DNA of 64,000 bases from Halorubrum distributum JCM 10118 (lineage in GTDB: Archaea > Halobacteriota > Halobacteria > Halobacteriales > Haloferacaceae). Below the pieces are notes generated by a model. It was not told the origin of the DNA, made no database searches, and saw only the letters and a program-made list of their open reading frames with translations. How positions within the stretch are numbered: position 1 is the first letter of the stretch; the number at the start of each line of letters is the position of its first letter. A program made the position numbers and the translations under genes. Location: NCBI RefSeq assembly GCF_000337335.1, contig NZ_AOJN01000024.1:1-64000 (forward strand). The letters are read 5' to 3'. Positions 40,591 to 64,000 of this stretch are shown in pieces.

Positions 40591-40645
40591 CAGTAAGGAC
40601 AGACTCGTCGCGCTCTAAAGCGGCTGCGGCGATTACGAGGTCACC
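40538..40645 (-). pseudogene. VapC-like PIN-domain C-terminal remnant
   Basis: On the minus strand the frame from 40645 reads GDLVIAAAALERDESVLTGD then SHFATIPGVSVQKYR and a TGA at 40538-40540. This is the C-terminal third of a VapC/PIN toxin: the D-x-x-I-A-A and L-T-x-D-x-H-F patterns are typical. It has no start of its own and fuses to the queC fragment end, so it marks a breakpoint. Confidence 0.65.
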
Positions 40646-41220
40646 GGCGGTTCAGCGTACGCGATCGGGTCGCGTGACCCGGCGTTCCGGAACGCCTCTA
40701 ACCGGAAGGCACAGGCATCGCACGTTCCACACGCTGGTTCTTCATCGCGGTAACACGACCATGTCATGTCGTACGGCACCCCGAGCTCTAACCCGCGCTC
40801 CGCGATCTCCGTTTTCGACCACTCGACGAACGGTGTTTTCAACTCGATGTCCGTCTCCGGTTTCGTCCCCACGTCGATCAAATTCTGAAACGCGTCAAAG
40901 AACGCCTGGCGACAGTCAGGATACCCGGAGAAATCCTCCGAGTGCGCCCCAATAAACAGCGCTTCTGAATCTGTTGCTTCCGCGTACGATATCGCTACCG
41001 ACACCAGATTCGCGTTTCGGAACGGGACGTACGACGTCGGAATCCCATCACTCTCCAGGTCCGCGTCAGCCACGCCCATCTCCTCGTCCGTCAAGCTTGA
41101 CGCTCCGATTTGGGAAGGTGTCCCATTTCGATATGCGAGAAGTCAGCTGCGCCAACCTCCTCAGCAAGCGCCTGTGCGCACTCGCACACCCAGTCTTTGT
41201 ACAGTGCCTGTATCCCCTTA
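40633..41220 (-). pseudogene. queC: queC fragment, 5'-truncated and frameshifted (copy 1)
   Basis: The minus-strand frame from about 41094 to 40633 encodes the C-terminal part of QueC (preQ0 synthase for archaeosine): DIPTSYVPFRNANL-like start, FIGAHSEDFSGYPDCRQAFF, KTPFVEWSKTEIAERGLELG and the zinc-site block WSCYRDEEPACGTCDACAF. The preceding QueC part (CECAQALAEEVGAADFSHIE) continues in another frame up to about 41200, joined by a one-base deletion near 41115. The N-terminal ATP-pyrophosphatase loop (SGGxDS) is absent. The gene is dead. Confidence 0.85.
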
Positions 41221-43792: not shown

Positions 43793-44836
43793 ATGAGTGA
43801 GGAGTTTATTGAGGAGATTGACGATATTCTCTCAGATGTTCTCAGCGATGTCGATGCCACGTCTTCAGCAGAGATAGAGCAGAACATCACGTTCGGACAG
43901 TCGGTGTCTGCTGAGCGGCAAACCGCGATCGTTGATGATGGGATCGACCAGTTAGCGGCTGAGCTGGATGTTCCCGCGGCGACGGTCGATCTTGCAAAAT
44001 CTCTGCGCGATCAGTACCGTGATCAGCGCGGAGACCTCATCGGAACCGCGCTCGAATTAGTCGCTGCTTCATGCTTGTACTGCGCAGTCAAAGTCACAGA
44101 AGTCCCGTTGGATCCAACTGACTTCGTTACCGCGGACGATACTGTGGTGACCCGGAAAGCATTACTTCGACGGTCGAAAGATATCGCCAGTACCGTCGGA
44201 CTCGACCCGTCCGCGTTCTTCGGCAGCGGACAGTATGTGGACCGGTACTGCGACGCGCTCGACGTGAGTGACGCAGTCAACGAGCGTGCACGCGAGATCA
44301 TCGAAATCACAGAGGAATCCGGGCTGTCCAGCGGGAAAAGCCCGTCCGGCTGGGCCGCCGCGGCCGTGTACAACGCGTGTCTCGACGTCGGTGAGAAACG
44401 GACGCAACAGGAACTCAGTGGGATAGCGAACGTCTCGGAAGTAACGATCAGAAACCGGTATCAGGAACAGCGCGCCGGCCTGCGGCAGGCCGAACCGCTC
44501 CCGGCTGACCCGATCAAAGTTATCGACCACGTCGCGGGTGCAAGCGAGGTCGGGTCGGCAACCAGAGACCTCGCGGAACTGTTGATTGAAAATGCACGGG
44601 CGGACGAGTACCCTGTTGATAAAGAAGCGACGCTGTGGGGGCTCGCGGCACTCCGGCGAGCAAGTCAACTGACAGATGGCGACATCAAAATCAAAACGCT
44701 CTCTCAATACACGGACGAAAGCTCGGATGAAATATCCTCACGAGCGAGACGGTTGCGCTCTGTCTTGGATCACCGTGAGTTGAACGACTCCCGCTTCAAA
44801 CACACTCAGCAAGCGAGCGAGTTCGAACAGGACTGA
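43793..44836 (+). CDS. TFB-like factor lacking the zinc ribbon
   Basis: The 347-residue protein has cyclin-like repeats of transcription factor B: one around 45-140 (LIGTALELVAASCLYCAVKV), one around 160-235 (SPSGWAAAAVYNACLDVGEK, then VSEVTIRNRYQEQRAGL) and a third helical block (about 240-325: EATLWGLAALRRASQLTDGD). The N-terminal zinc ribbon that recruits RNA polymerase is absent: there is no CxxC. It is replaced by an acidic segment EEFIEEIDDILSDVLSDVD. Likely an island-specific promoter factor or a competitor of cellular TFB. Confidence 0.75.
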   Translation: MSEEFIEEIDDILSDVLSDVDATSSAEIEQNITFGQSVSAERQTAIVDDGIDQLAAELDVPAATVDLAKSLRDQYRDQRGDLIGTALELVAASCLYCAVKVTEVPLDPTDFVTADDTVVTRKALLRRSKDIASTVGLDPSAFFGSGQYVDRYCDALDVSDAVNERAREIIEITEESGLSSGKSPSGWAAAAVYNACLDVGEKRTQQELSGIANVSEVTIRNRYQEQRAGLRQAEPLPADPIKVIDHVAGASEVGSATRDLAELLIENARADEYPVDKEATLWGLAALRRASQLTDGDIKIKTLSQYTDESSDEISSRARRLRSVLDHRELNDSRFKHTQQASEFEQD

Positions 44837-44999: not shown

Positions 45000-47900
45000 A
45001 TGACCTCGCCGACCCGGCGCGGTTTCCTGTATGGTCTCACACTCACTGGCGGTGTCGCTGCAGGGTGTTCCACCGCCGGGTTGGTCACGGCACAGGAGAC
45101 GTCGATTGGTGACTCGCGGATGGACCAGTACGACGCCGCGAACACCGGGTACGCACCGAACGAACGTGGGCCGCGGAGTAATCCGCGGGAACTGTGGCGT
45201 TCCGACGCCGGTGACGCACTCATCGGTTCCGCCGCAGTCGTCGATAGCGTCACATACACGGCGGATGAGACCGGGACTGTTCGTGCTCTCGACGCCGTCA
45301 CCGGAATGGAGCAGTGGGCGGTCGATCTCGACGAGGAGATCGTTACATCCCCGGTTATTGCCGGTGAAATGGTCTGCGTTACGACGGGTGAATCACTGCA
45401 CGCACTCGACGTGAGTGATGGCGCTGAGAGATGGGTCGAAACGATCGGTGCCGACCCGTCATCCCCGATAGTGACCGACGGGGTGATCTTCGTTGCCGGG
45501 GGAAACACCGTACACGCGTTCGCTCTTGATGGAACGGCTGCAACGGCCGTCGATCTGACGGGTGAGATTGTCTCGACACCGGCAGTCGACGGATCCACGT
45601 TGTACGCCGCGACTGACGCGGGCACGGTGTACGCGTTCGACGTCGAGCGGTCGACCAGTTCTGTGACGCTCACCGAAAGGTGGACGACCAGTACGGTGAT
45701 CGACCGGCGACCGACCGTCACGGTTTCAGGCGGAATACTGGTCGTTACCGGGGCGAGTCCGGGTGAGGGCGAACAGGGGCGCGTCTACGCACTCAGTGCG
45801 GACACCGGAGAGGACCAATGGGCGTTCAGTACCACGAGATGGATTGAGAGCGGGGCCGCGATTGATGATGACACCGTGTACGTCGGCGGGGATAACGGCG
45901 ATGTCGTTGCATTAGCGGCGGAGTCGGGGGCGGAGCGCTGGCGGTTCAATGCGAACGACTCGTGGAGTTTCCTCTACTGGGGGCCCGGTGTGTCGGGCGG
46001 GCTCGTGGTTACCGACGACACGGTGTACGTCGGGAGCGAAGACTACAACCTGTACGCGATCGATGCGGATACGGGTGCCCCGCAGTGGCGGTTCCCGACT
46101 AGTGACGCGATTGTGTCGACGCCGACGGTCGTCGACGGGATCGCGTTCGTTGGGAGCACTGACGGCGCGCTGTACTCGATCACGTCGCCTGAAGCGTCAC
46201 CGGTTCCCCTCGACGGGGGCGCTGGAGGTGCCGGTGTTGAAACCGATTTTGACGACTCGAATACCGGCGACGGCGGGGTCCTAGGATTCAGTTTGCCGAA
46301 CGGTCTATCGGGGCTTGTCACGTCACCAGTCACGCTGCTCGTCCTCGCCATCGGACTGCTGTACGGAATTGCGTCGATCGCGTTAAACGACAGCGACGGA
46401 AACGACACGGCGTCGACGGGATCGGCGGCCGAGGCCCAATCGACGCCAGCAATCTATAGAGGATCTGCATCGTCTATAACCGTCGAATCGGACACTGAGT
46501 CAGGGACACCTGTTGAATCGGCCGGCAGCGTTGCGTCAGGGGCAGCCGATGAAGTACGGGGCGAATCACCCGACGACAGGGGTGACGGGTCGCAACGCAC
46601 CGAGCTACTCGACGAGTTACGCGAGTTGGACCGCAAGTGGTCGGAGATCGACCGGACACTGCTTTACTCCGTCGGTAACCATCACCCCGACGAGTACGAA
46701 GACATCTTCGGGAGTCTTGACGCCGCACTCGCCGTCGCCGGCGTCCACGATCCAGACGACTCCGCAACGCCGTCAAATGAGACTGACTCCGACCCCGCAG
46801 ACACCACCTCCAGCACGTCCACGCGTGACACCGACGAGGCGGCGGAAACCACGGAAACGTCGTCCGAGACTCCCAATTCCCAGACAAGGACAAAAAAGAC
46901 AACCACAGGGATGCCATCACGCGAGGCGCTCATCAACGAGTTACAAGCACTCGCGGAGGACTGGGACACAATCGACCGGAAACTGTTGTACTCCGTCGGG
47001 AACCACCACCCGGACGAGTACGAAGACGTCTTCGGGAGTTTCGACGCGGCGCTCGTTGCCGCCGACATCGCCGACCCGGACACAGCGACGGCGGTCACCG
47101 CGGACAAATCGTCACCATTCGATGAGCACGACGAACTCATCACCGAACTCCAAGAACTCGCGGAGGACTGGGACACGATTGACCGGAAACTGTTGTACTC
47201 CGTCGGTGATTACCACCCGGACGAGTACGACGACGCGTTCGGAAGCGTCGATGCCGCTCTCTTCGAAGCCGGACTCACAGACACTGACACGACCGATGAC
47301 GACACAGCCGCCGAGACCGCCGAGAACTCGACGGATACAAGACCCGCGTCGACTACCGGGAAGCAACCGCAGTCAGTCGATTCGAGCACCATGACCGATC
47401 TTCACTCGAACGAACTCGCCGAGCTGTACGTCGCGTTCGACCGGTTCCAGCACCTGTTAACCGAGCTCGCAGGCGAACTCGACACCGACGGGACCGCACC
47501 GATGGAGCAGTGGGCGGACGCTGTCGCCGACCACTGGGGCAGCGGCGGCCCGGCCGGCGCGCCGAACTACGGCGTTCAACAGCGCGACCGGAACGACTTC
47601 AGCATCCGCGACTACCGCGACGCGCACGGCGACGGCGAGCGCGTCACGGACTTCCATCACGTCGAGTTCGCCCCTGCCGACGACCGGATCCAGCACTTAC
47701 TCGGCGACGCGATCGACGACTGGGACCACGCCGTCCCCGTCGCACCCGACTCGAACACGCCGCTCCCCGTCGCTATCGCAAGCACCGAAGCGCTCGACAC
47801 AGCTATCGAACTGCTCGACGAATTCCCCGCGTACCCCGACGCCGACCGCCCAGCACCGGACGACACCGACGTGAGTCCGGACAGCCCGACCCTGCCCGAC

Positions 47901-48869
47901 GGGCGCGTCGACACGCTCACCGTTACTGTCCTCAACCACGACCCGAACCCCGGGTCGAAACGCGACGCCCGTCTCCAAGTCGCACTCACAGACGGCACCG
48001 AAGTCCCGCTCGACATCTGGTCCACACACGACCTCTCGCTTGACTGGAGCGTCGGCGAGACGTACACGATCGAGCAAGCTCGGCACAAAAGCTGGGAGAC
48101 AAGCACCGGGACCGGACACCAACTCAGCAGCACGAAAGACTTCCGCGTCATGCCAACTGACGCTGGCTCTGCGGGCAACACGCCGGACATCAACCCGCCG
48201 TCACGGTCGAGCGCGGATACGAGTTCGACGTCCGGACGTAGCCGGGACACCAGTACGAGCAGTGGAAAGAGCGCTTCGAACAGTGGCAGAAGTCGAACGA
48301 GGAGTAGTGGCACCCCAAGCCGTGGCGACCTCCTTGACGCGATGCAGCACGTCGGCGAGACGATCGACCGGCCGTTGAAAGCGAGCGACGTGAGCGACAC
48401 CACAGCGTATTCCGTGAATGATATCACCCGCGTGTTCGGTTCCTGGCAAAACGCCCTCGACTCAGCCGGCATCGACAACAAAGCCCGACTCATCGACGAC
48501 CTGCACCGCGTCGCCGACACCCTCGGACACCGCCCCACCACCACCGAAATGAACGAGCACGGGCACGTCTCCGCCACCACCTACGCCACGTACTTCGGCA
48601 CGTACACCGCCGCCGTCGAACAAGCGTTCGACGAAGCAGAAGCCACTCGTTCACCGACCGGCACGGACACCGCAGATCAGGCCGACGCCACGAAGACGGG
48701 ATCCGGCGCGAGCACAGCGAGGAGTGGGGGGACAACCGCACGGGACACTGGAGACAGCGACCAGGCCACCAGCGGTGATGAGAGCACTGGCACGACCCCT
48801 GACGACGACGGGATTCTCGGCGATATTATGAACGATTTCGACGAATTTTCTGATTCCGAAGCGGAGTGA
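45000..48869 (+). CDS. Giant Tat lipoprotein: PQQ propeller, TM, HARE repeats, OB-like domain
   Basis: The 1289-residue protein starts with a twin-arginine signal and lipobox (TRRGFLYGLTLTGGVAAGC). Residues about 40-415 form a PQQ/BamB-like beta-propeller (repeats such as VRALDAVTGMEQWAVDL and LYAIDADTGAPQWRFPTSDA). A membrane helix follows (about 437-464). The C-terminal part should be cytoplasmic: three near-identical homing-endonuclease-associated repeats (about 535-581, 643-692, 711-760; core LLYSVGNHHPDEYEDVFGS), an unknown block (800-940), an OB-like segment (970-1054), two more repeats (1110-1157, 1164-1211) and an acidic tail DDGILGDIMNDFDEF. Domain calls are by eye; no homologue of this full architecture is known to me. 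Confidence 0.75.
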   Translation: MTSPTRRGFLYGLTLTGGVAAGCSTAGLVTAQETSIGDSRMDQYDAANTGYAPNERGPRSNPRELWRSDAGDALIGSAAVVDSVTYTADETGTVRALDAVTGMEQWAVDLDEEIVTSPVIAGEMVCVTTGESLHALDVSDGAERWVETIGADPSSPIVTDGVIFVAGGNTVHAFALDGTAATAVDLTGEIVSTPAVDGSTLYAATDAGTVYAFDVERSTSSVTLTERWTTSTVIDRRPTVTVSGGILVVTGASPGEGEQGRVYALSADTGEDQWAFSTTRWIESGAAIDDDTVYVGGDNGDVVALAAESGAERWRFNANDSWSFLYWGPGVSGGLVVTDDTVYVGSEDYNLYAIDADTGAPQWRFPTSDAIVSTPTVVDGIAFVGSTDGALYSITSPEASPVPLDGGAGGAGVETDFDDSNTGDGGVLGFSLPNGLSGLVTSPVTLLVLAIGLLYGIASIALNDSDGNDTASTGSAAEAQSTPAIYRGSASSITVESDTESGTPVESAGSVASGAADEVRGESPDDRGDGSQRTELLDELRELDRKWSEIDRTLLYSVGNHHPDEYEDIFGSLDAALAVAGVHDPDDSATPSNETDSDPADTTSSTSTRDTDEAAETTETSSETPNSQTRTKKTTTGMPSREALINELQALAEDWDTIDRKLLYSVGNHHPDEYEDVFGSFDAALVAADIADPDTATAVTADKSSPFDEHDELITELQELAEDWDTIDRKLLYSVGDYHPDEYDDAFGSVDAALFEAGLTDTDTTDDDTAAETAENSTDTRPASTTGKQPQSVDSSTMTDLHSNELAELYVAFDRFQHLLTELAGELDTDGTAPMEQWADAVADHWGSGGPAGAPNYGVQQRDRNDFSIRDYRDAHGDGERVTDFHHVEFAPADDRIQHLLGDAIDDWDHAVPVAPDSNTPLPVAIASTEALDTAIELLDEFPAYPDADRPAPDDTDVSPDSPTLPDGRVDTLTVTVLNHDPNPGSKRDARLQVALTDGTEVPLDIWSTHDLSLDWSVGETYTIEQARHKSWETSTGTGHQLSSTKDFRVMPTDAGSAGNTPDINPPSRSSADTSSTSGRSRDTSTSSGKSASNSGRSRTRSSGTPSRGDLLDAMQHVGETIDRPLKASDVSDTTAYSVNDITRVFGSWQNALDSAGIDNKARLIDDLHRVADTLGHRPTTTEMNEHGHVSATTYATYFGTYTAAVEQAFDEAEATRSPTGTDTADQADATKTGSGASTARSGGTTARDTGDSDQATSGDESTGTTPDDDGILGDIMNDFDEFSDSEAE

Positions 48870-48923: not shown

Positions 48924-50261
48924 TTACGCCGTGGTCCAGATTCGACCGTGTGGCCGCCCGTGAACGCTGTCCATCGCCATGAGTACTTGCGTGACGTACT
49001 CCCACAGTTCAGTCCGGTCCCGATCGCCAACGTCAACGGCGTCCCACACGGCCTGCTTGACGTGCTGTGAACGCGCGACCGTGCGCTCGCGGATATACCG
49101 CGCAGCGGCGACGGCACCGTCCACCACTCCCGACTCCGTGTACGCACCGAACTCCGGTGACTCCGTCTCCTCCTGACCGGACACCGTATCGGAGTCTTGT
49201 TCTGAACGCACAGCCCGGGCTCCGGTCGAGCCTGACGCCTCACGAACGGTGGTTTCAGCCGCATCGGACCGGTCCCGACGCTCGGAATCACCGGCCTCTG
49301 CCGACCGCGGCGAATCCGTACCCTCATCGGCACGCGCTGTCACCCCGTCGTCCGTCTGCGCGTCAGTCTCCACATCACCGACGGCCTCCGTACTTGCATC
49401 CTCCTCACCGCCGTCCGCCTCGTCAACCAACGACGAGAACGACGAGGCGATCTCGCCGAGCATCCCGCCCTCGTTTTGAATCTCATCGAACGAGACGTCC
49501 GGTGCCGGGCGCTCTGCATCGGAACTGTACTCGGCTAAATGCCGCCGCGGATCCAACTCCGCGTTGATAAACAACGGTTCGAAATCAGCATCTTCGAAGA
49601 TCCGGTCGTACTCCGCGAGGATACCTTGCAGTGCAATCTCACCGTCTACTGTGACCGTATACGTCTCATCGATCGTCGCGTGCAAGTCTCCGTTCGACGC
49701 GGTGTCGTGACTCTGCAGCTGCTCCGACGCAGTGCTCACCGGTTCGATGAGATGACTGCGAAGGAATCGCGTCAAAAACCCGATTTTACTCTCATCAACT
49801 GTTGAAACGGCACCGAACAACTCTCGCGGCGTGAACCGGTCCCGGTCCAGCATCGCTTCAGTCAACGCGCGGTACTCATCGTACGTCGCCACCAACCACA
49901 ACATGTCGTACACGATCGGGTTGTACTCCTCGGGCGGCGCCGGAATGATATCGAACAGGAATGCGAGATCGTCCGGCGTGAACCCCTGTTGAAGTAACTG
50001 GCGCTCCCCGGACATCCCGCGGTTCAACTGGATTTCAAACAACCACCGATACCGGATCACCAAGCGAACCAACGCCCACTCACGGTGCGCCGAATCAAAA
50101 TAAATCGCGTACACACCGGTCGCAGCGGACTTCGCCGGCACAATCCGGAGTGACTCGATCGAATCATCACGGAGCACGTCCTGCGGCTGGCGTGTCAACT
50201 CATCACGAAACGTCGGACCTTCTTTGATAATTGACACAGGGAACCCGGAGCGATTCGTCAT
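48924..50261 (-). CDS. Uncharacterised protein, 445 aa, last gene of SMC operon
   Basis: An N-terminal domain (about 1-250, starting MTNRSGFPVSIIKEGPTFRD) has mixed alpha/beta character. Then come a segment like the shared tail motif (EGGMLGEIASSFSSLVDE, about 268-285), a long acidic low-complexity linker (about 288-380) and a C-terminal helical, winged-helix-like domain (AAARYIRERTVARSQHVKQA). No catalytic motif is recognised. It is the fifth gene after helicase, small protein, ATPase and 171-residue protein, with a gap of only 65 bp. Confidence 0.65.
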   Translation of the reverse strand: MTNRSGFPVSIIKEGPTFRDELTRQPQDVLRDDSIESLRIVPAKSAATGVYAIYFDSAHREWALVRLVIRYRWLFEIQLNRGMSGERQLLQQGFTPDDLAFLFDIIPAPPEEYNPIVYDMLWLVATYDEYRALTEAMLDRDRFTPRELFGAVSTVDESKIGFLTRFLRSHLIEPVSTASEQLQSHDTASNGDLHATIDETYTVTVDGEIALQGILAEYDRIFEDADFEPLFINAELDPRRHLAEYSSDAERPAPDVSFDEIQNEGGMLGEIASSFSSLVDEADGGEEDASTEAVGDVETDAQTDDGVTARADEGTDSPRSAEAGDSERRDRSDAAETTVREASGSTGARAVRSEQDSDTVSGQEETESPEFGAYTESGVVDGAVAAARYIRERTVARSQHVKQAVWDAVDVGDRDRTELWEYVTQVLMAMDSVHGRPHGRIWTTA

Positions 50262-50325: not shown

Positions 50326-50841
50326 TCAGCTGCTCATCATGTCGCTATCGAAGCTATCGACGATCTGTGAGAGGATATCCTCGTTGTCCGTGGTGCCGTC
50401 GGCCTCGTGGAACTTATCGATGAACGAAACGAGCCCGTCACGCGGCGGGTTCGCCGCGTCGCCGAACTCGCGGTCTAACCGCATCGCCCCGGCGTGCGCG
50501 TACCGTGCGAGCACCTCCAGTTGCGTTTCCGGTTCCACGAGCGCGCTCGAATCGCTCGTGTGCTGATACGCGATCGACGCGGCGACCGCCCGGTACGTCG
50601 GCTTGTCAGTGAAATGCATCCACAGCATTTCGCCTTGCGTTCCCTCGTCGGTTTTCCCTTGGAACTCTTTGTCGGCGTACGTGTTCACCGTCGGCCGGTC
50701 GCTCACGGCGTACCCGACGCTCGCCGAGAACACGAAGAAATCGACGAGGCTATCGAATATCTCCCAGTCGCTCACCATCTGATCGTAAATGTCGTGCCGG
50801 TGGTAGTACTGCCGTGTCGTCGCCGTACTGGAGTCGCTCAT
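50326..50841 (-). CDS. SMC-operon accessory protein, 171 aa
   Basis: The ATG overlaps the stop of the SMC-like ATPase gene by four bases (ATGA), so it is coupled to it. The protein is mostly helical (QMVSDWEIFDSLVDFFVFSA; HAGAMRLDREFGDAANPPRD), with no zinc or catalytic motif. Its size and position resemble middle components of ABC three-component or Lamassu-type systems. The C-terminal tail NEDILSQIVDSFDSDM matches the tail motif of other island proteins. Confidence 0.7.
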   Translation of the reverse strand: MSDSSTATTRQYYHRHDIYDQMVSDWEIFDSLVDFFVFSASVGYAVSDRPTVNTYADKEFQGKTDEGTQGEMLWMHFTDKPTYRAVAASIAYQHTSDSSALVEPETQLEVLARYAHAGAMRLDREFGDAANPPRDGLVSFIDKFHEADGTTDNEDILSQIVDSFDSDMMSS

Positions 50842-52877
50842 TGATTCACCTTCTGAGAAATCTCTTCTTCAACGATCCGGGTCCGCGGGTACGACGTGTC
50901 ACCGTCGCCGTCGTCGAAATCAAGCCGGTACTGCCGACTGGCGATCTCGTTCATCTCGTTCGCAACCGGGCCCCGCCACTGCGAGTCCGTGACGAGCACC
51001 ACGACCTGCTCGGCCATCCGCGGGATCACGCGACTCACCGTCCGCCGATGGTCGTCGTCTAACGCCCCGAACGGCGAATCCATCACGATCGGGTAAATCC
51101 CGCCGCTGAAATACTCCGCGTCAGTATCCGACTCGTACCGTTCCCGGGCAATCTGCACGAGACTCCCGATGAACGTCAGACTCGCAATCTGCCGTTCCCC
51201 ACGCGACTTGTCGACCTCCAAGTACTCACCCTGCAACTGATCGCGGATCCGGAGTTCGAACTCGTCCGTAATCTCGGCCTCATATCCCTTCGTCGCAATC
51301 TCATCAAACGTCTTCGACACGAGATCGTTCGAGTACTCCCGCACCTGATTCTGGAGCTGTTCGAACGACGCTTCAAGTTGCTGTTGGACCTTCGACGTCG
51401 CCTGCATCCGTCGCCGCGCAAGCTCGGCTTGACTCTCCTCTTGCCGCGCCTCATCGATCTCCTCGCCGATTTCTTCAAGCCGTTCCTCGCGCGTCTCGAT
51501 ATCACGCTCCAAATCCCAAATCTCGCGTTTCAACTCCTCACGTTCAGATTTCTTCCGGTTCCGCGCCGACTCCAACTCGGACGGCGTTTCGCCCGTCTCG
51601 GGATCCGTGATGTTCATCTCCTCTAACTCGCCTTGAATCTCGTCTAACTGCTCGTCAACGGACGTGAGTTGATCCCGTAATTCCGACCGCTCCTCAAGCA
51701 GCTCGTCAACCGTGTCCAAATCCTCCGCCTGCTCGTCCTGAATACTGGTGAGATGCGAGATAATCCTGATCGCCGCCTGATCAACCCCGTTCTCCGCTGC
51801 ATCCGACCGGTACGCCTCAACGCTGTCGTACGGGTGTGTCCCTTCCTCTAACGGTCGGCCACAGATACACTCGCCTTGCGCGAGGAGCTTGTCCACGAAC
51901 TGATTCGACACCTCTGACGGGATCTCACCGCGTTCGCGCAGATCGTCAAGGTCCTGTGCCGTTGCTTCGATCGCTGGCATCACGAACGGGAGGTGACCCT
52001 TCTTACTGATCTCCGCGTCAATCGACTCGTTGATCTCCGCGATTTCCGCCTGTAACGCGTCCTGCCGCGACTCCAACCGGTTCCGTTCTTCTTGTAACTC
52101 CGCTGCTTCTTCGATCCCTTCGAGCTTCCGCTCGATCTCACTGATTTCCTCTCGAAGCCGTTGGCGGCTCTGCTTTTTCGTGTCGATCGACCCGGTCAAA
52201 TCCTCAACCTCGTCTCGAAGTTCACTGCGCGTGTCGATCAGGTCAGATAACTCCGAGTTCCCGTGTTCCTGCACTTCCGATTCGAACCGTCCCTCAACCT
52301 CACCGAGATGCCGGATCGACCGCTCGATGATGGTGAGGCCCATAATATTTTGAATCGCCTGCTTCACCTCGTCTTGACTGTGCCCCTCGGAGAGCTGTGT
52401 GATGTACTCGCCGTCGAAAAAGAACAGGTCGCTCAACCGGTCGGGGAGAATCTGCTCGATCGACCGCTGCGGGTTCTGTCGCGTCCCGCGTTTCCCGTCC
52501 GCCGTCTCGTAGGACAACGACAGGTCCTCATCGACGATCTCGCCGAGATAATCGTCCGTCGCCTGCCGCTGATACTCGTAGGACCGCGTGACTTCGTAAT
52601 CGACGTCCTCGTGTTCGAACTCCAGTGCCACTTCGACTGACACCGTCTCACCTGGGTCCACCTCAGCGAGCGCGCCTTGACTAGCGAGCTTGTCAGGTCG
52701 CAAGTTAAAATTCGACTCGTCGTACAGCACCCACAGGAACGCGTTTTTCAGCGTCGTCTTCCCGGACCCGTTCTGCCCGTGCACAACGGTGACGTTCTGA
52801 TCGTCACCTAACGCGAACTCCACGGTTTCAGACCGGAACTGCCGGAAATTCGTGAGGTGCAGTCGATGCAGTTGCAT
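50838..52877 (-). CDS. SMC/DndD-like ATPase with zinc-hook cysteines
   Basis: The 679-residue ATPase begins QLHRLHLTNFRQFRSETVEF, with Walker A GQNGSGKT (residues 34-41). ILPDRLSDLFFFDGEYITQL is characteristic of DndD/RecF-related ABC ATPases. Two coiled-coil arms (about 195-300 and 365-520) flank a hook with C337-x-C339 in ECICGRPLEEGTHPY. The C terminus has the ABC signature region (SRGERQIASLTFIGSL) and Walker B VMDSPFGALDDDHR. Likely a DNA-sensing or remodelling ATPase of a defence system; no dndC or dndE is nearby. Confidence 0.85.
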   Translation of the reverse strand: MQLHRLHLTNFRQFRSETVEFALGDDQNVTVVHGQNGSGKTTLKNAFLWVLYDESNFNLRPDKLASQGALAEVDPGETVSVEVALEFEHEDVDYEVTRSYEYQRQATDDYLGEIVDEDLSLSYETADGKRGTRQNPQRSIEQILPDRLSDLFFFDGEYITQLSEGHSQDEVKQAIQNIMGLTIIERSIRHLGEVEGRFESEVQEHGNSELSDLIDTRSELRDEVEDLTGSIDTKKQSRQRLREEISEIERKLEGIEEAAELQEERNRLESRQDALQAEIAEINESIDAEISKKGHLPFVMPAIEATAQDLDDLRERGEIPSEVSNQFVDKLLAQGECICGRPLEEGTHPYDSVEAYRSDAAENGVDQAAIRIISHLTSIQDEQAEDLDTVDELLEERSELRDQLTSVDEQLDEIQGELEEMNITDPETGETPSELESARNRKKSEREELKREIWDLERDIETREERLEEIGEEIDEARQEESQAELARRRMQATSKVQQQLEASFEQLQNQVREYSNDLVSKTFDEIATKGYEAEITDEFELRIRDQLQGEYLEVDKSRGERQIASLTFIGSLVQIARERYESDTDAEYFSGGIYPIVMDSPFGALDDDHRRTVSRVIPRMAEQVVVLVTDSQWRGPVANEMNEIASRQYRLDFDDGDGDTSYPRTRIVEEEISQKVNQ

Positions 52878-53108
52878 CTATTCCGGGATCTCCTCTTCGA
52901 CGATCTCTCGGATCTCCGGGATGATCTTGTGCGGGCGGCGCATGTGGAGCTGCTCGCTTTCCGCCTGTAACGTCCGCTCTCGAATCCGTCGCAGCGTCTC
53001 GTCCCCAATATCAGCTGTTGACCCCTGATCGTCCATGCTTCGAACGTATCTGTCCCTCTGTCTTAATGATTGTTCCAGCTTGGAGACACTCCCGTCACCG
53101 ACAGTCAC
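52878..53108 (-). CDS. Small charged protein between helicase and ATPase genes
   Basis: The product has 76 residues if the GTG at 53108 is used (MTVGDGSVSKLEQSLRQRDR) or 52 if the ATG at 53036 is used. It is highly charged and helical (ETLRRIRERTLQAESEQLHM) and ends in EIREIVEEEIPE. Its TAG directly precedes the ATG of the ATPase gene, so translation is coupled. Probably an adaptor of the ATPase or helicase. Confidence 0.55.
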   Translation of the reverse strand: MTVGDGSVSKLEQSLRQRDRYVRSMDDQGSTADIGDETLRRIRERTLQAESEQLHMRRPHKIIPEIREIVEEEIPE

Positions 53109-53150: not shown

Positions 53151-54575
53151 TTACAACTGCCGTAAGTTGAACGCGCGCTTCAACTCCCCGATCGCTCCGG
53201 CGTCCGTCGAGATGCCTTGCACATCTGCATCAGGATGATTCCGCGCTGCCTCCCCGAACAGATTCACGCGCTCCAGCTCTTGCCGAACGAGATTCCGCTC
53301 CGTTTTGAACCGTTCGTCACCCGCCGTCGCGTCCCGGATCTCGCTCGGCGGTGCCACGATAAAATCGTGAATCACCGCGTGTTGCTTTCCCGGGTGTGTC
53401 CGGAGAATCCGGCCGCGGCGTTGCACGAACTGCCTGGGGTTCGACGAACTCGCCAGCACGTATGCCGTCCGCGTCGCCGGCACGTCAACTCCTTCATCGA
53501 GACACCGAATCGCCACCAACGCTTCCACGTCACCAGCATCGAACGCCGCGAGCAACTCCTCGCGTTCTCCGCGGTCCTCATCTGCTGTGAAGCGCTTCGC
53601 ACGAATCCCGAGCTTCCGCAGCGTAGACAGCGCTGCGTCCACGTGCCGCTCCGTCCGGTCCCCCACGCTCCCCTCAACCGTCCCGTCCCCGCAGTACACC
53701 AGCGTGTGCTCAACTGGGCCTTGCTCACCGATCAACTGCATTAACCGGTCGAGTTTATTCTCCGCGCTCCCGATCAACCGCGCCCGCTCGAACAACGCGA
53801 ATTTCAAATCCGTCTGCTCGTTGTTCTCGGCGTCGCCCAAGTCACCGCCGTACCGCTGCACCAACCGCGCGATCTTTCTGGACAACCCGAGGTACTCGTC
53901 TTCTTCTTCCGGCGTTAACTCGACGACATGCGGGATGTAGTAATACTCACACAGGTTCCCGTTCCGGATCGCTTCCTGCAACGAGTACTCGAACACGACA
54001 TCACCGAAATACTCGAACAGCGCTTCCGACCCCTCGTCGTCGTAGAAGCGTTGCGGCGTCGCCGACAGGCCGAGCCGCATCGGGATACTTTCCGGTAACC
54101 GTTCCCGGCGATGCGCCGCCCCGAGGTGATGCACCTCATCGCCGATCAGCATCAGCTCCTGCCGGTTGACCCGAGTGAGGACCCGTTGAAACGCGTCCGA
54201 CGTAAACGTCTCGTGTGTCGTGATCACGACGAATCCGTCACGGAACCCGCGATTGAACTCCGCCACTTGCCCCTCGAACTGATCTTGCCACGTCGCCCGG
54301 GACTCGTACGCACGCACCGGACTCACGCCGAAATCCTGCACGTCCTCACGCCACTGATCGACGAGGTGCTGATACGGCACCGCAATAATCAGGCCGAGTT
54401 TCCCGTCGAGTTGCGCCGTGATCGTACTCGCCGCCATCAACGCAGTCACCGTCTTCCCCGTTCCCGTCGCCATCTGTAACACGCCTTGCGCACCGCTTTC
54501 CACCCACGACCGGATCGCATCCTGCTGATACGACCGGGCTTCAACCCACTCCGGATTCGACAGCGCAAACCCCAT
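53151..54575 (-). CDS. SF2 helicase of XPB/SSL2 type
   Basis: The 474-residue helicase has QMATGTGKTVTALMAASTI (Walker A, about 34-52), the DEVH motif in LIGDEVHHLGAAHR, LGLSATPQRF, and the second RecA-like domain with DEGVDVPATRTAYVLA and QFVQRRGRILR. The N terminus (RSYQQDAIRSWVESG) is the Q-type start of XPB-like helicases. No nuclease domain is fused. It is the first gene of the SMC operon; the divergent mcrB-like gene begins 133 bp away. Confidence 0.88.
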   Translation of the reverse strand: MGFALSNPEWVEARSYQQDAIRSWVESGAQGVLQMATGTGKTVTALMAASTITAQLDGKLGLIIAVPYQHLVDQWREDVQDFGVSPVRAYESRATWQDQFEGQVAEFNRGFRDGFVVITTHETFTSDAFQRVLTRVNRQELMLIGDEVHHLGAAHRRERLPESIPMRLGLSATPQRFYDDEGSEALFEYFGDVVFEYSLQEAIRNGNLCEYYYIPHVVELTPEEEDEYLGLSRKIARLVQRYGGDLGDAENNEQTDLKFALFERARLIGSAENKLDRLMQLIGEQGPVEHTLVYCGDGTVEGSVGDRTERHVDAALSTLRKLGIRAKRFTADEDRGEREELLAAFDAGDVEALVAIRCLDEGVDVPATRTAYVLASSSNPRQFVQRRGRILRTHPGKQHAVIHDFIVAPPSEIRDATAGDERFKTERNLVRQELERVNLFGEAARNHPDADVQGISTDAGAIGELKRAFNLRQL

Positions 54576-58565: not shown

Positions 58566-58586
58566 CACTGATCTGTGAGGAAGTGT

Positions 58587-59690
58587 ATGGGAACCGACGA
58601 ATTAGATGATGAGTTGGCTGACGACATCCTAGACGCTGCGAAAGGACAAGACCCGCCGAAATCGGTCAAGTGGTTTGCAGAGCAGTTCGACATCGGTCCC
58701 AAAGAGACACAGCGTTATCTCACGGCGTGGATCGACGGTGGGTGGATGAAACCGGTTCAAGACAGCGACGGAACGTGGCTGTTTGTCGGCGAAGACGTTG
58801 GGAACTCTCCGTTCAACACGGCTGACAACGTCTTACGAGATATTAACCAGGTCATTCTCGGCGCGGAATTGACTTCGCCAAAACCGGTGTCTTGGTTTGC
58901 GGAAAAAGCGGATACAGCACACTGGAAGGCCCACTGGGCACTCAAAGAACTCAAAAAGACTGGCAGTGTGACCGAACACAACCTTGACGACGTACCGGTC
59001 TACTCCCCACCGCACGTAGAGGCCGTCTCTGACACGCCTCAACTATACCACACACGACATGACACCACAAAACTAGTTTTTCCCAACGGCGACGCACACG
59101 AAGCCACGGTAACTACTGTTGGTGACTGTACAGTCGCTTCCGCATCGAGCAGACATGCTGCTGCCGTGTTCGTCGATGATGAGTTCTCGTTCCTCATTGA
59201 CGAAGACGAACCAATCAGCCGCGTTGCAATCGGAAAAAACGGACACGTAGCATACCACTCAGGCGAGCATCGAGAATCCGTCTTCCACATCACAACGTGG
59301 ACAGGAGAACACCTCCTCGAAGAGCGTGTAGAAGTCGCCCGGTCGCCAGTGTTCACACCTGACGGCGACCACGTTGCCTACTGGCGATTAACCGATCACA
59401 CGGTGTACATTTACAACACAGCAACACGCTCCGTATCCGGCGAGTTCGACACGACAAACATCCGACGAACAAATATTGGCCTCCACGGTGTGACCCGCAA
59501 CGACAGGCCAGCCTTCCAAATCACCGACACCTACGGGCCCGGCGACGACGAAGTACTCGGACACATTTCCCCCACAGGCGAACTACTCGATACCGACCCC
59601 ACCCCAGCTTCAAACCGCACTGAACAAGCAGCTCCCAGCGACGACGCGATCTTAGACGAGATCATGGACGAGTTCGAACACGGACTCTAA
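58587..59690 (+). CDS. Double winged-helix / beta-propeller protein
   Basis: The 367-residue protein starts MGTDELDDELADDILDAAKG. Two winged-helix-like domains follow (about 20-70: SVKWFAEQFDIGPKETQRYL; about 90-130: SWFAEKADTAHWKAHWALKE), then WD40/TolB-like beta repeats (about 145-330: HVAYWRLTDHTVYIYNTATR). The acidic tail DDAILDEIMDEFEHGL matches the tail of the giant lipoprotein. It could be a DNA-binding scaffold or regulator of the island. Family not recognised. Confidence 0.65.
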   Translation: MGTDELDDELADDILDAAKGQDPPKSVKWFAEQFDIGPKETQRYLTAWIDGGWMKPVQDSDGTWLFVGEDVGNSPFNTADNVLRDINQVILGAELTSPKPVSWFAEKADTAHWKAHWALKELKKTGSVTEHNLDDVPVYSPPHVEAVSDTPQLYHTRHDTTKLVFPNGDAHEATVTTVGDCTVASASSRHAAAVFVDDEFSFLIDEDEPISRVAIGKNGHVAYHSGEHRESVFHITTWTGEHLLEERVEVARSPVFTPDGDHVAYWRLTDHTVYIYNTATRSVSGEFDTTNIRRTNIGLHGVTRNDRPAFQITDTYGPGDDEVLGHISPTGELLDTDPTPASNRTEQAAPSDDAILDEIMDEFEHGL

Positions 59691-61567: not shown

Positions 61568-63235
61568 TTATAAGGGGGTTTCGTCGACATCGCCATCGTC
61601 GTCATATGCGCCCGTCACACCCGCTGGTTCGTTTTCAAGCCGGTCGTGCGCCGTTTTCCATTCCTTCGTCGCTTCGGGGCTATCGGCACCGTGTTCCGTG
61701 TGACGTTCCCGGACGTTCAACAGGACCGGCGTGTTCATCGCGTCTCCGGCCACCACGGCTTGCCCGGGTGTGAGTCCAGGGAGTTCGTCGAGTACGTCTT
61801 CGCCAGCGCTCTCGACCGACGTGCGGATCGCCTGCTGGTCGTTCGGGTTCTGTATCTGCATGATGATCTGCGTCCCGCACTGTGACAACACGTCGGGGTC
61901 GATTTTCGACGGGCGTTGACTGATGATACCGACTCCGAACCCGAACTTCCGGCCTTCCGAGAGGATCCGGCGGAGAATTCCGAGGCTCCGAGCGTCCCCG
62001 TCAGGGGCGAACCGGTGTCCTTCCTCGAACAGCGAAAAGACGGGGTGGTCGATCGCGTCGTCCTCACCGCGCGTCGCCGCTTCCCGGGCCTCGTACAGTT
62101 TCCGGAGGAGCGCCGCGGCGAGCATCTGCTGGTCGGACTGGGACAGTCGATTGAGCTTGAGGACCGTTACTTGACCGGGCGCAACGAGGTCTGTGAGTTC
62201 GTCGCGGGCCGCCGGGACGAACAAGTCGCGGTTCAGCGACTTGTTCAACCGCCACGCGAGCGCATCGACCGTCCCGCTGCGCTCCCCCTCAACCTCCTCG
62301 CATTTGTCGATGATGTCTTGCGGCGTGATGTGGTTGCTCTCACCTGTGAGGTCCCGCCAGGCTTCGTTGAGCACGTACCGCATCCGGTCGCTCGGCCCGT
62401 CGAGCAACGCGAGCAAGTCGCTGTACGTGAGGTCCGGGATCGGGATCGTGATCTCGTCGGGCGTGATGATCTCCACTTCGGGCCGGTACCCGTCGTCGCC
62501 TTCGAACACGTGGCTGTGTTCGTCGCGCCGCATCTCCGGGAGCGTGTCGTACTCCGCATGCGGGTCGAACACCAGCATCGCGGCGCGCGACGCCGGCCGC
62601 ATCATCTCCTCGATCAGAACGCTCGCCGTGTAGGATTTCCCGCTCCCGGTCGATGCGAGGATGGCCAGGTGCGTCGCCGCGAACGTATCGATCGGGATGT
62701 GCATGTTCGCAGCCCCGTGCGGCCGGTTCAACAGCCATCCGAGGTGCGCCGTGCCGCTTCCGGAGTCCCAGTCCGCGCTCGGCAACACGGCCTCCAAGTA
62801 CGAGTCGGCGGCGAGTTGGAGTCGCGTCCCCGGCTGCGGTTGGATACGCGGGTTCGTGAACGTCGATATCTGCTCGTCGAAGTACCCGATCGTTCGCGCC
62901 GTGAACCGACTGAGTTCCGTGTCCTCCGTCGGAACACCGAGGGCACCGGCGACCTCGGCCGGGTCCACCTCCGGGTTCGCCAAGAACTCGCCCGGTAGCC
63001 CGCGTTCCTGTGCCGTGTTCGTCACCCGAGCGAGGATCGCTTCCTGCTCGCCGTCAACCGTCGCGTCGTAGGCGACGAACTCCCCGGTACGAAGCCCCTG
63101 GTCGCCGGGTGCGATGAACTCGAATTCCGAAGGGTCGTCTCCGGGGCACGCGACCGTCCCGATCGGCGTCCCGGTGAGCGCGGGGACGTCGCGCGTCGCC
63201 GGCGGACTCGGGAGCCCGTGGTCGTCGCTCGTCAT
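61568..63235 (-). CDS. herA: HerA-like DNA translocase ATPase
   Basis: The 555-residue ATPase has a HAS-barrel-like N terminus (about 20-110), Walker A STGSGKS (195-201 in LAILASTGSGKSYTASVLIE), DPHAEYDTLPEMR, and the Walker B/FtsK-HerA block PVFSLFEEGHRFAPDGDARS, followed by ILRRILSEGRKFGFGVGIIS and QRPSKID. It pumps DNA for end processing, normally with the NurA nuclease. Its start overlaps the next upstream gene by four bases. It may be a housekeeping or a defence-linked copy. Confidence 0.88.
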   Translation of the reverse strand: MTSDDHGLPSPPATRDVPALTGTPIGTVACPGDDPSEFEFIAPGDQGLRTGEFVAYDATVDGEQEAILARVTNTAQERGLPGEFLANPEVDPAEVAGALGVPTEDTELSRFTARTIGYFDEQISTFTNPRIQPQPGTRLQLAADSYLEAVLPSADWDSGSGTAHLGWLLNRPHGAANMHIPIDTFAATHLAILASTGSGKSYTASVLIEEMMRPASRAAMLVFDPHAEYDTLPEMRRDEHSHVFEGDDGYRPEVEIITPDEITIPIPDLTYSDLLALLDGPSDRMRYVLNEAWRDLTGESNHITPQDIIDKCEEVEGERSGTVDALAWRLNKSLNRDLFVPAARDELTDLVAPGQVTVLKLNRLSQSDQQMLAAALLRKLYEAREAATRGEDDAIDHPVFSLFEEGHRFAPDGDARSLGILRRILSEGRKFGFGVGIISQRPSKIDPDVLSQCGTQIIMQIQNPNDQQAIRTSVESAGEDVLDELPGLTPGQAVVAGDAMNTPVLLNVRERHTEHGADSPEATKEWKTAHDRLENEPAGVTGAYDDDGDVDETPL

Positions 63236-63933
63236 CGAAGCACCCCGCGGCTCTCGCTGGACTGCCAGCGGACCTTCTTCTCGACGACGTCTAACACGTC
63301 GTCAGCGTCCGTGAGTCGCCGTAACCGGTCCACGATGGCTAACGCGACTTCCGGGCCGAACTGGTCGGCCGTGGCGATCAAGCGCTCGTAGTACTCCAAG
63401 TTCAGCGTCCCGTCGTGCGTGTGGAACTGTCGGAACCCGTCGTCCGAGAGCGCGTACACGAAATCGTCGATGTCCAGCGTCCACCGCGGCATCGACTGCG
63501 ACACCGCGCTGAACGACTGCGGGTCGCCTTCCTCGTCACCGTTCGGATGCCGGTGCGGGTCGGCATCGAGTTCGGCCGTCCCGAGGAGCGCGACCCCGAG
63601 CATCGTCTGCTTCTCGTTCACGTACCCGGGGACGAACATCTCCTGATCCGGGGCGGAAAGCCGTGGGCCGTCCCGTCCCTGATCGGGGTCAACGAGCCGC
63701 GTGTCGTACACGACCCCGACCACGGCGTACGGAGTGCCGCGAACGGTTTCCGTGGCGTACACGGGCTGGCCGAACTCGTACTCGTCGCGTGACGGCGGGT
63801 CCTCCCGCTCACCGTCTCGGAACGCCTGCGCGACGTAGTCCATCTGCGTGTTGGAGTGCACGATACTGCCTAACGCCGTGTCGGTCGGTGCGATCGCCGG
63901 CGTCGAATCGTCCGCGTTCGGTTGTTGTGTCAT
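63232..63933 (-). CDS. HerA-coupled protein, 233 aa
   Basis: The product begins MTQQPNADDSTPAIAPTDTA, has a HAS-barrel-like strand pattern (LGSIVHSNTQMDYVAQAF; FGQPVYATETVRGTPYAVVG) and ends with a helical part (LIATADQFGPEVALAIVDRL). The stop overlaps the HerA start (ATGA), so the products probably act together. It lacks the acidic NurA nuclease motifs I would expect. Probable accessory subunit of HerA. Confidence 0.6.
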   Translation of the reverse strand: MTQQPNADDSTPAIAPTDTALGSIVHSNTQMDYVAQAFRDGEREDPPSRDEYEFGQPVYATETVRGTPYAVVGVVYDTRLVDPDQGRDGPRLSAPDQEMFVPGYVNEKQTMLGVALLGTAELDADPHRHPNGDEEGDPQSFSAVSQSMPRWTLDIDDFVYALSDDGFRQFHTHDGTLNLEYYERLIATADQFGPEVALAIVDRLRRLTDADDVLDVVEKKVRWQSSESRGVLR

Positions 63934-63949
63934 GAGTTGTGTCGTCGTG

Positions 63950-64000
63950 TTATCGGCGGCGGCGTTCCTTCGAGAGGGCTTTCGCGTCCCATTCGATCGG
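63950..64000 (-). CDS. C-terminal end of a gene continuing past the window
   Basis: The minus-strand frame from the window edge reads IEWDAKALSKERRRR and stops with TAA at 63950-63952, 17 bases before the start of the 233-residue gene. The close spacing suggests the same operon as HerA; NurA is the expected neighbour but too little is visible to say. Confidence 0.4.
   Translation of the reverse strand, partial: PIEWDAKALSKERRRR

What the first reader, a model, noticed from the sequence alone, without database searches (positions are those of the whole stretch)
45000..48869. Transmembrane propeller-to-nucleic-acid protein: possible envelope-to-DNA sensor
One 1289-residue protein joins a Tat lipoprotein signal, an outer PQQ-type propeller, a single membrane helix and a cytoplasmic part with five homing-endonuclease-associated repeats and an OB-like segment. 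The repeats occur in DNA-binding homing endonucleases and OB folds often bind nucleic acid. An outer-surface sensor wired to a DNA-binding interior, inside a defence island, could detect virus adsorption or DNA entry. I know of no described system with this arrangement.
Basis: partly seen in the sequence, partly recalled or inferred. Interest (0 to 1): 0.85.

Follow-up and report, generated by a model that had tools for sequence, protein, structure and literature searches.

The report
Membrane propeller arm of Pbe-type defence
A salt-loving archaeon has one long protein that seems to hold a propeller-shaped domain outside the cell and DNA-binding-type domains inside, and it ends in a short peptide shared with a known antiviral machine next door, so it probably ties that machine to the cell membrane; whether it senses viruses is untested.

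Summary
The 1289-residue ORF has an RR signal, a PQQ-type propeller, one hydrophobic segment, five HNH_repeat units (Pfam 'homing endonuclease associated repeat') and a real OB fold of the RPA/BRCA2/POT1 ssDNA-binding kind. The 'DNA sensor' reading is only partly supported.

New here: the cytoplasmic half is a modular 'chassis' shared with haloarchaeal proteins that carry a helicase, bacterial PH domain or membrane helices instead of the propeller. Its C-terminal peptide (GILGDIMNDFDEF) matches that of PbeD, a subunit of the neighbouring PbeABCD-type antiviral cassette. A matrix from three window tails ranked PbeD, chassis or small pbe-island proteins as its top 27 hits among 754 proteins. Tail-bearing chassis proteins lay at PbeC loci in 5 of 5 cases, tail-less ones in 0 of 15 (p=6e-5). 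A genome of another family has propeller–TM–HNH–OB–tail in the same island as its pbe cassette. In the window the N-terminus was swapped inside HNH repeat 1.

Best reading: a membrane-spanning accessory subunit that docks on a Pbe complex lacking the HKD nuclease region, in a genome without DndC, and holds it at the envelope. Sensing of adsorption or DNA entry is conjecture. New variant of a known kind.

The parts
45000..48869 (+). P0001, 1289-aa propeller-TM-chassis protein
45000..45077 (+). Tat-type signal, residues 1-26 (RR at 6-7, possible lipobox Cys23)
   Evidence: sequence; (just below cut-off); RR conserved in G137, Cys not
45117..46199 (+). PQQ-type beta-propeller, residues 40-400
46317..46385 (+). 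Predicted membrane helix, residues 440-462
   Evidence: hydropathy only; not confidently modelled
46599..46763 (+). HNH repeat 1; the domain-swap breakpoint relative to G147 lies inside it, at 46706
46923..47075 (+). HNH repeat 2
47127..47285 (+). HNH repeat 3
47397..47873 (+). Conserved alpha-rich 'mid' domain, residues 800-958, no family name
47883..48164 (+). OB fold, RPA/BRCA2/Teb1-like, residues 962-1055
48312..48473 (+). HNH repeat 4
48474..48635 (+). HNH repeat 5
48810..48866 (+). C-terminal tail ILGDIMNDFDEFSDSEAE region shared with PbeD
48924..50261 (-). 445-aa pbe-locus protein; internal copy of the tail motif at residues 266-277 (49431-49466)
50326..50841 (-). PbeD-like (DndE cognate), ends in the same tail
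50838..52877 (-). PbeC, CxC-type ABC ATPase
52878..53108 (-). PbeB-position small protein
   Evidence: position and similarity between loci
53151..54575 (-). PbeA-like SF2 helicase without the HKD region
58575..59690 (+). 371-aa protein ending in the same tail (DUF7342 match)
43793..44836 (+). TFB-like factor directly upstream, same strand; a TFB-like gene also neighbours the G137 relative

Best explanation
P0001 is a membrane-spanning accessory subunit of the neighbouring PbeABCD-type (CxC ABC ATPase) antiviral system. Its exported propeller sits outside, one helix crosses the membrane, and the cytoplasmic part (helical HNH repeats, an unnamed mid domain, an RPA-like OB fold) is suited to hold DNA, probably single-stranded. 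Its last 15 or so residues copy the C-terminus of PbeD and dock it on the Pbe core (PbeA helicase, PbeC ATPase). This Pbe lacks the HKD nuclease region and the genome has no detectable DndC, so membrane placement, and perhaps a signal from the propeller when a virus attaches or injects, would direct or license the machine where DNA enters. Shown by computation: domains, gene neighbourhood, tail sharing, domain swap, second instance. Inferred: topology, DNA binding, docking. Speculative: sensing.
For: (1) Domain anatomy. (2) Tail: a matrix from three window tails, noted before any relative was fetched, has PbeD, chassis or small pbe-island proteins as its top 27 of 754 (three of the 27 are the training tails). 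A 16-tail matrix finds five internal matches above 15, four of them in the family of P0001's neighbour gene. (3) Of 20 loci picked only by mid/OB similarity, tail-bearing ones hold PbeC in 5 of 5 cases, tail-less ones in 0 of 15, p=6e-5. (4) 11 of 19 haloarchaeal genomes with PbeC have a chassis protein in the locus or island. (5) G137, another family: RR signal, propeller (45%), TM, HNH, OB, tail, in an island with its own pbe cassette. (6) A Tat-propeller-TM-kinase in G232 shows that N-out/C-in propeller receptors exist. (7) Residues 640-1289 are constrained, dN/dS 0.25. (8) HNH_repeat occurs in this genome only in P0001 and another island gene. (9) No DndC in the genome.
Against: No partner of the tail is known. 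Chassis and PbeD tails of one locus are not more alike than random pairs (p=0.28). In G147, whose chassis is 74% identical, the local PbeD tail is of another type. P0001 is convergent with the pbe genes, not in their operon, and in G137 it lies about 37 kb away. Only two propeller members were found in about 600 genomes. The TM helix is not confirmed by structure prediction.
Confidence: 0.5

Rival explanations
1. Membrane-bound one-component regulator: the propeller senses an envelope signal and the HNH/OB interior controls transcription of the island, perhaps with the adjacent TFB-like factor, in the manner of CadC or ToxR with inverted order.
For: A TFB-like gene is directly upstream here and next to the G137 relative; chassis proteins in G137 and G002 contain PadR-like winged helices.
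Against: The window protein has no recognised winged helix; the tail is shared with PbeD, a machine subunit rather than a regulator; the OB is of ssDNA-binding type.
Confidence: 0.17
2. Tether without sensing: the propeller is only a surface or envelope anchor that holds a Pbe accessory subunit at the membrane.
For: Other chassis proteins carry membrane helices or a bacterial PH domain instead, so localisation may be the common function.
Against: A large propeller whose identity is kept at 45% with G137, including an AN.SW.F..WGPG stretch, is more than an anchor needs.
Confidence: 0.2
3. Chance fusion: a recent recombination joined a surface propeller gene to a chassis gene and the product has no selected function as a whole.
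For: The homology break lies inside HNH repeat 1, and the fusion was found in only one species of the genus.
Against: The open frame is intact; G137 keeps the same order in another family, with the closest known relative of this propeller; the tail is intact.
Confidence: 0.08
4. Envelope or DNA-uptake function unrelated to defence, such as handling of DNA during cell-cell transfer.
For: Outer domain plus ssDNA-type OB would suit DNA passing the membrane.
Against: Locus and tail tie it to Pbe cassettes.
Confidence: 0.05

Closest known systems
DndCDEA-PbeABCD / CxC ABC ATPase systems (PMC6459918, PMC10853773)
   Same: The window has PbeA-like helicase, a PbeB-position gene, PbeC with CxC hook and a PbeD-like gene; P0001 shares PbeD's C-terminal tail
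   Different: No DndC in the genome; PbeA lacks the HKD region; chassis, 445-aa and 371-aa tail proteins are not among the four published pbe genes
Zorya, Kiwa, SNIPE (PMC12904381)
   Same: Membrane-embedded part coupled to a DNA-targeting part at the place of DNA entry; Kiwa, like the published Pbe, blocks replication without cutting
   Different: No shared proteins identified; P0001 joins outer propeller and DNA-type domains in one chain and would act with an ABC ATPase
Membrane receptor kinases with a PQQ-type propeller (haloarchaeal G232 protein; AfsK-like proteins)
   Same: Propeller, one TM segment and a cytoplasmic output; the G232 protein has the same N-out/C-in order
   Different: Kinase output instead of the HNH/OB chassis
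BamB (TIGR03300)
   Same: Propeller fold
   Different: Far below the BamB cut-off (136.7 vs 285.2 bits)

Membership tests
PbeABCD / CxC ABC ATPase system (window cassette) | PbeC: ABC ATPase with CxC hook | tested here: met
   PADLOC PbeC 5.5e-225; CICG at residue 337
PbeABCD / CxC ABC ATPase system (window cassette) | PbeD (DndE cognate) next to PbeC | tested here: met
   171-aa gene, TIGR04062 2.6e-07, below that family's cut-off; conserved next to PbeC
PbeABCD / CxC ABC ATPase system (window cassette) | PbeA: HKD nuclease fused to SF2 helicase | tested here: not met
   Helicase part only, hence a variant, as in 17 of 18 haloarchaeal loci where PbeA was seen
PbeABCD / CxC ABC ATPase system (window cassette) | Pairing with phosphorothioation (DndC) | tested here: not met
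   TIGR03183 absent from the genome; solitary pbe loci are also reported in PMC6459918, so not decisive
P0001 as a subunit of the Pbe system | Genomic association with PbeC | tested here: met
P0001 as a subunit of the Pbe system | Physical docking through the tail | not testable with these tools
   Sequence sharing only
Zorya / Kiwa (as relatives) | ZorAB or KwaAB proteins | tested here: inconclusive
   No PADLOC match for P0001 at E 0.01; a negative profile search only
PF18780 HNH_repeat | Repeats above the family's cut-off | tested here: met
   150.1 bits against 26
RPA/SSB-type OB fold | Five-stranded OB barrel with ssDNA-binding structural neighbours | tested here: met
   ssDNA binding itself not tested
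BamB | Curated equivalog score | tested here: not met
   136.7 vs 285.2 bits

The most novel reading that the evidence does not exclude
A trans-membrane trigger for a modification-free Pbe machine: the outer propeller recognises an attached or injecting virus and, through the tail and the ssDNA-type interior, licenses the helicase/ABC ATPase complex to seize incoming DNA. Self would then be told from non-self by place of entry rather than by DNA modification, with exchangeable N-terminal modules (propeller, PH, helicase, membrane helices).
Probability: 0.22. Interest if true: 0.86.

Novelty: new variant of a known kind. Interest (0 to 1): 0.62.

Why it matters
Solitary Pbe systems without DNA modification genes are an open puzzle: the original authors did not know whether they are active or what they pair with (PMC6459918). 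A conserved family of tail-bearing accessory proteins, some reaching through the membrane, offers a testable answer. It would also give archaea a counterpart of membrane-localised DNA-targeting defence such as Kiwa and Zorya. The shared tail is a simple handle: it predicts which proteins belong to the machine, and deleting about 15 residues tests it.

Tried and rejected
Scans of genome contigs with P0001 and with the two-propeller alignment (one 26% bacterial hit) and of viral contigs found no relative with this architecture. Phage records gave only weak propeller matches and nothing for mid+OB. Plasmid records gave propeller or chassis pieces separately, never the fusion. Own-locus co-variation of chassis and PbeD tails was tested and is not significant, p=0.28. 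The TFB N-terminus looks like the tail by eye (DILSDVLSDVDA), but 1.3% of random internal stretches score as high, so it is not claimed. Sequence searches of solved structures gave no homologue for the HNH repeats (designed helical repeats only) and weak Teb1 hits for the OB (E 0.11). The structure job on residues 27-1215 modelled propeller and repeats well but not the TM segment or linkers, and the OB worse than the separate job. Fold search of the mid domain is inconclusive because the OB fills the list. Literature searches for the repeat name, propeller conflict systems and Pbe/queC islands returned nothing useful. G433's propeller-TM protein lacks the chassis.

Full report
OBSERVATION. The ORF at 45000-48869 (+) is real and intact. 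Pfam finds a PQQ_2 propeller (3.7e-38) and HNH_repeat (PF18780, 2.1e-44; four stretches pass on their own). The fifth unit (residues 534-588) is 63% identical to the second. The only strong hydrophobic segment after the signal is at about residues 440-462. The signal has the RR motif and scores just below the Tat model cut-off.

STRUCTURE. AlphaFold2 on residues 27-1215 gives a confident propeller (strands over residues 63-395, pLDDT mostly above 90) and helical repeats (units 2-5 about 80-94, unit 1 about 55-80). The TM segment and the Ser/Thr/Asp-rich linkers are below 50. Foldseek puts the propeller with BamB, YxaL and designed propellers. A separate job on residues 786-1060 with 27 sequences gives pLDDT 84.6. 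Its C-terminal half is a five-stranded OB fold whose best structural neighbours are Teb1, BRCA2, HIN-200, RPA and archaeal SSB, Z about 9-11; the sequence profile touches Teb1 weakly. Its N-terminal half ('mid', residues 800-958) is an alpha-rich domain without a family name. I found no tested function for PF18780 repeats.

THE CYTOPLASMIC PART IS A MODULAR CHASSIS. Searching 391 haloarchaeal genomes with mid+OB gave hits in 80 genomes. In 20 fetched loci the same modules sit behind different N-termini: SF2 helicase (G147, G193), bacterial PH domain plus a CarboxypepD_reg-like domain (G233, G329, G009), membrane segments, or none; some are joined to metallophosphoesterases. None of these has the propeller. 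Against G147, the window's DNA similarity (80%) begins at 46706, inside HNH repeat 1, and runs to the end of the gene. The upstream TFB genes also match (82%), so the N-terminus has been exchanged between two conserved flanks. Residues 640-1289 show dN/dS 0.25 at dS 0.55.

SECOND INSTANCE. The propeller has one strong relative in the class sample: G137, 44-45% identity, 330 bits against 155 for the next. It is in a 1247-aa protein with RR signal, propeller, hydrophobic segment at 435, PadR-like winged helix, two HNH repeats, OB and tail. Two family-wide searches added no further chassis-bearing member. A Tat-propeller-TM-protein kinase (G232) supports N-out/C-in topology, since the kinase must be inside.

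THE NEIGHBOURHOOD IS A PBE SYSTEM. PADLOC and NCBIfam identify PbeC (50838-52877), the PbeA helicase (53151-54575) and a PbeD/TIGR04062-like gene (50326-50841); the 76-aa gene between PbeA and PbeC is in PbeB's position. In the literature PbeA is an HKD nuclease plus SF2 helicase, PbeB a small protein, PbeC a CxC ABC ATPase and PbeD a DndE cognate (PMC10853773). DndCDEA-PbeABCD stops halovirus replication without visible cutting (PMC6459918). The CxC hook is present in every PbeC fetched, while the N-terminal part of PbeA is missing in 17 of the 18 loci where PbeA was seen. DndC is absent from this genome.

THE TAIL. Before fetching relatives I noted that P0001, PbeD and the 371-aa gene (58575-59690) end alike. 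A score matrix built from those three tails was applied to the last 30 residues of 754 proteins from the fetched stretches. The 27 best, above the 99.9th percentile of shuffled and internal controls, are all PbeD, chassis proteins or small proteins of pbe loci or islands; three of them are the training tails. With 16 tails, the only strong internal matches are in the family of the 445-aa neighbour gene: four of five matches above 15. Among the 20 loci chosen by mid/OB alone, tail and PbeC coincide 5/5 versus 0/15 (p=6e-5; G147's PbeC lies in the adjoining stretch L107). Chassis proteins at Druantia-like loci often end in HHH instead. PbeD of 18 of 19 loci ends in this motif or a close variant. 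The simplest reading is that the tail is PbeD's docking peptide, copied onto accessory proteins. Its partner is unknown, and tails within one locus do not co-vary detectably (p=0.28).

MECHANISM. Shown computationally: domains, order, tail, loci, swap, second instance. Inferred: export of the propeller, single-span topology, DNA contact, docking to the Pbe core. Speculative: that the propeller senses adsorption or DNA entry. The absence of a modification gene in the window's island and of DndC in the genome makes location or a trigger an attractive way to direct the machine, but modification enzymes elsewhere in the genome were not excluded.

COMPARISON. By how it may work it resembles Kiwa, Zorya and SNIPE (membrane part plus DNA-targeting part; PMC12904381). 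By membership it belongs with haloarchaeal Pbe systems as an additional component that I found in neither of the two Pbe papers read. 'New variant of a known kind' is the fair label. The distinctive points are the one-chain outer-propeller-to-OB arrangement and the shared docking tail.

LIMITS. Gene calls in relatives come from a simple script, so start sites may be off. The 20 loci include P0001's near relatives, and the tail matrix includes P0001's own tail. No experiment supports any step.

Noticed in passing
window 40633-41094 (-): C-terminal remnant of a queC-like gene (N-terminal part missing, stops upstream; named from sequence memory); the island starts here, and longer queC-like genes lie beside pbe loci in L113 and L114, suggesting an integration hot spot.
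   Followed up: partly
window 43793-44836: TFB-like factor without a recognised zinc ribbon; its N-terminus (EEFIEEIDDILSDVLSDVD) resembles the Pbe tail by eye but not significantly.
   Followed up: partly
window 48924-50261: 445-aa family found in four pbe loci carries the tail motif internally (GMLGEIASSFSS).
   Followed up: yes
window 58575-59690: Protein with a DUF7342 match and possibly a small propeller-like part, ending in the same tail: a second candidate accessory subunit.
   Followed up: partly
L040, L042, L052, L054, L110-L122: In haloarchaea PbeA almost always lacks the HKD N-terminus, and a second SF2 helicase (relatives of L040:13432-16161) often sits with the chassis protein; this contrasts with the published statement that most CxC systems have an HKD-helicase PbeA.
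   Followed up: partly
L096:8151-10841: Tat-PQQ propeller-TM-Ser/Thr kinase, in inverted order relative to AfsK-like kinases.
   Followed up: no
L054:1-4749: Protein with N-terminal membrane segments, HHH and eleven HNH repeats followed by the OB; its C-terminus is cut by the end of the stretch.
   Followed up: no
L041, L045, L050, L051, L055, L093: A conserved multi-gene cluster with a DruE/BrxH-like helicase carries chassis proteins ending in HHH instead of the tail; the C-terminal end may mark which system a chassis belongs to.
   Followed up: partly
window 61568-63999 and beyond (L123): HerA-type helicase followed by Mre11/Rad50-like genes, HerA 97% identical in G147: right-hand border of the island.
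   Followed up: partly
mid+OB model against BFVD: Best viral structural match R4T810 (349 aa, TMq 0.45, 196 columns) covers more than the OB; not identified further.
   Followed up: no
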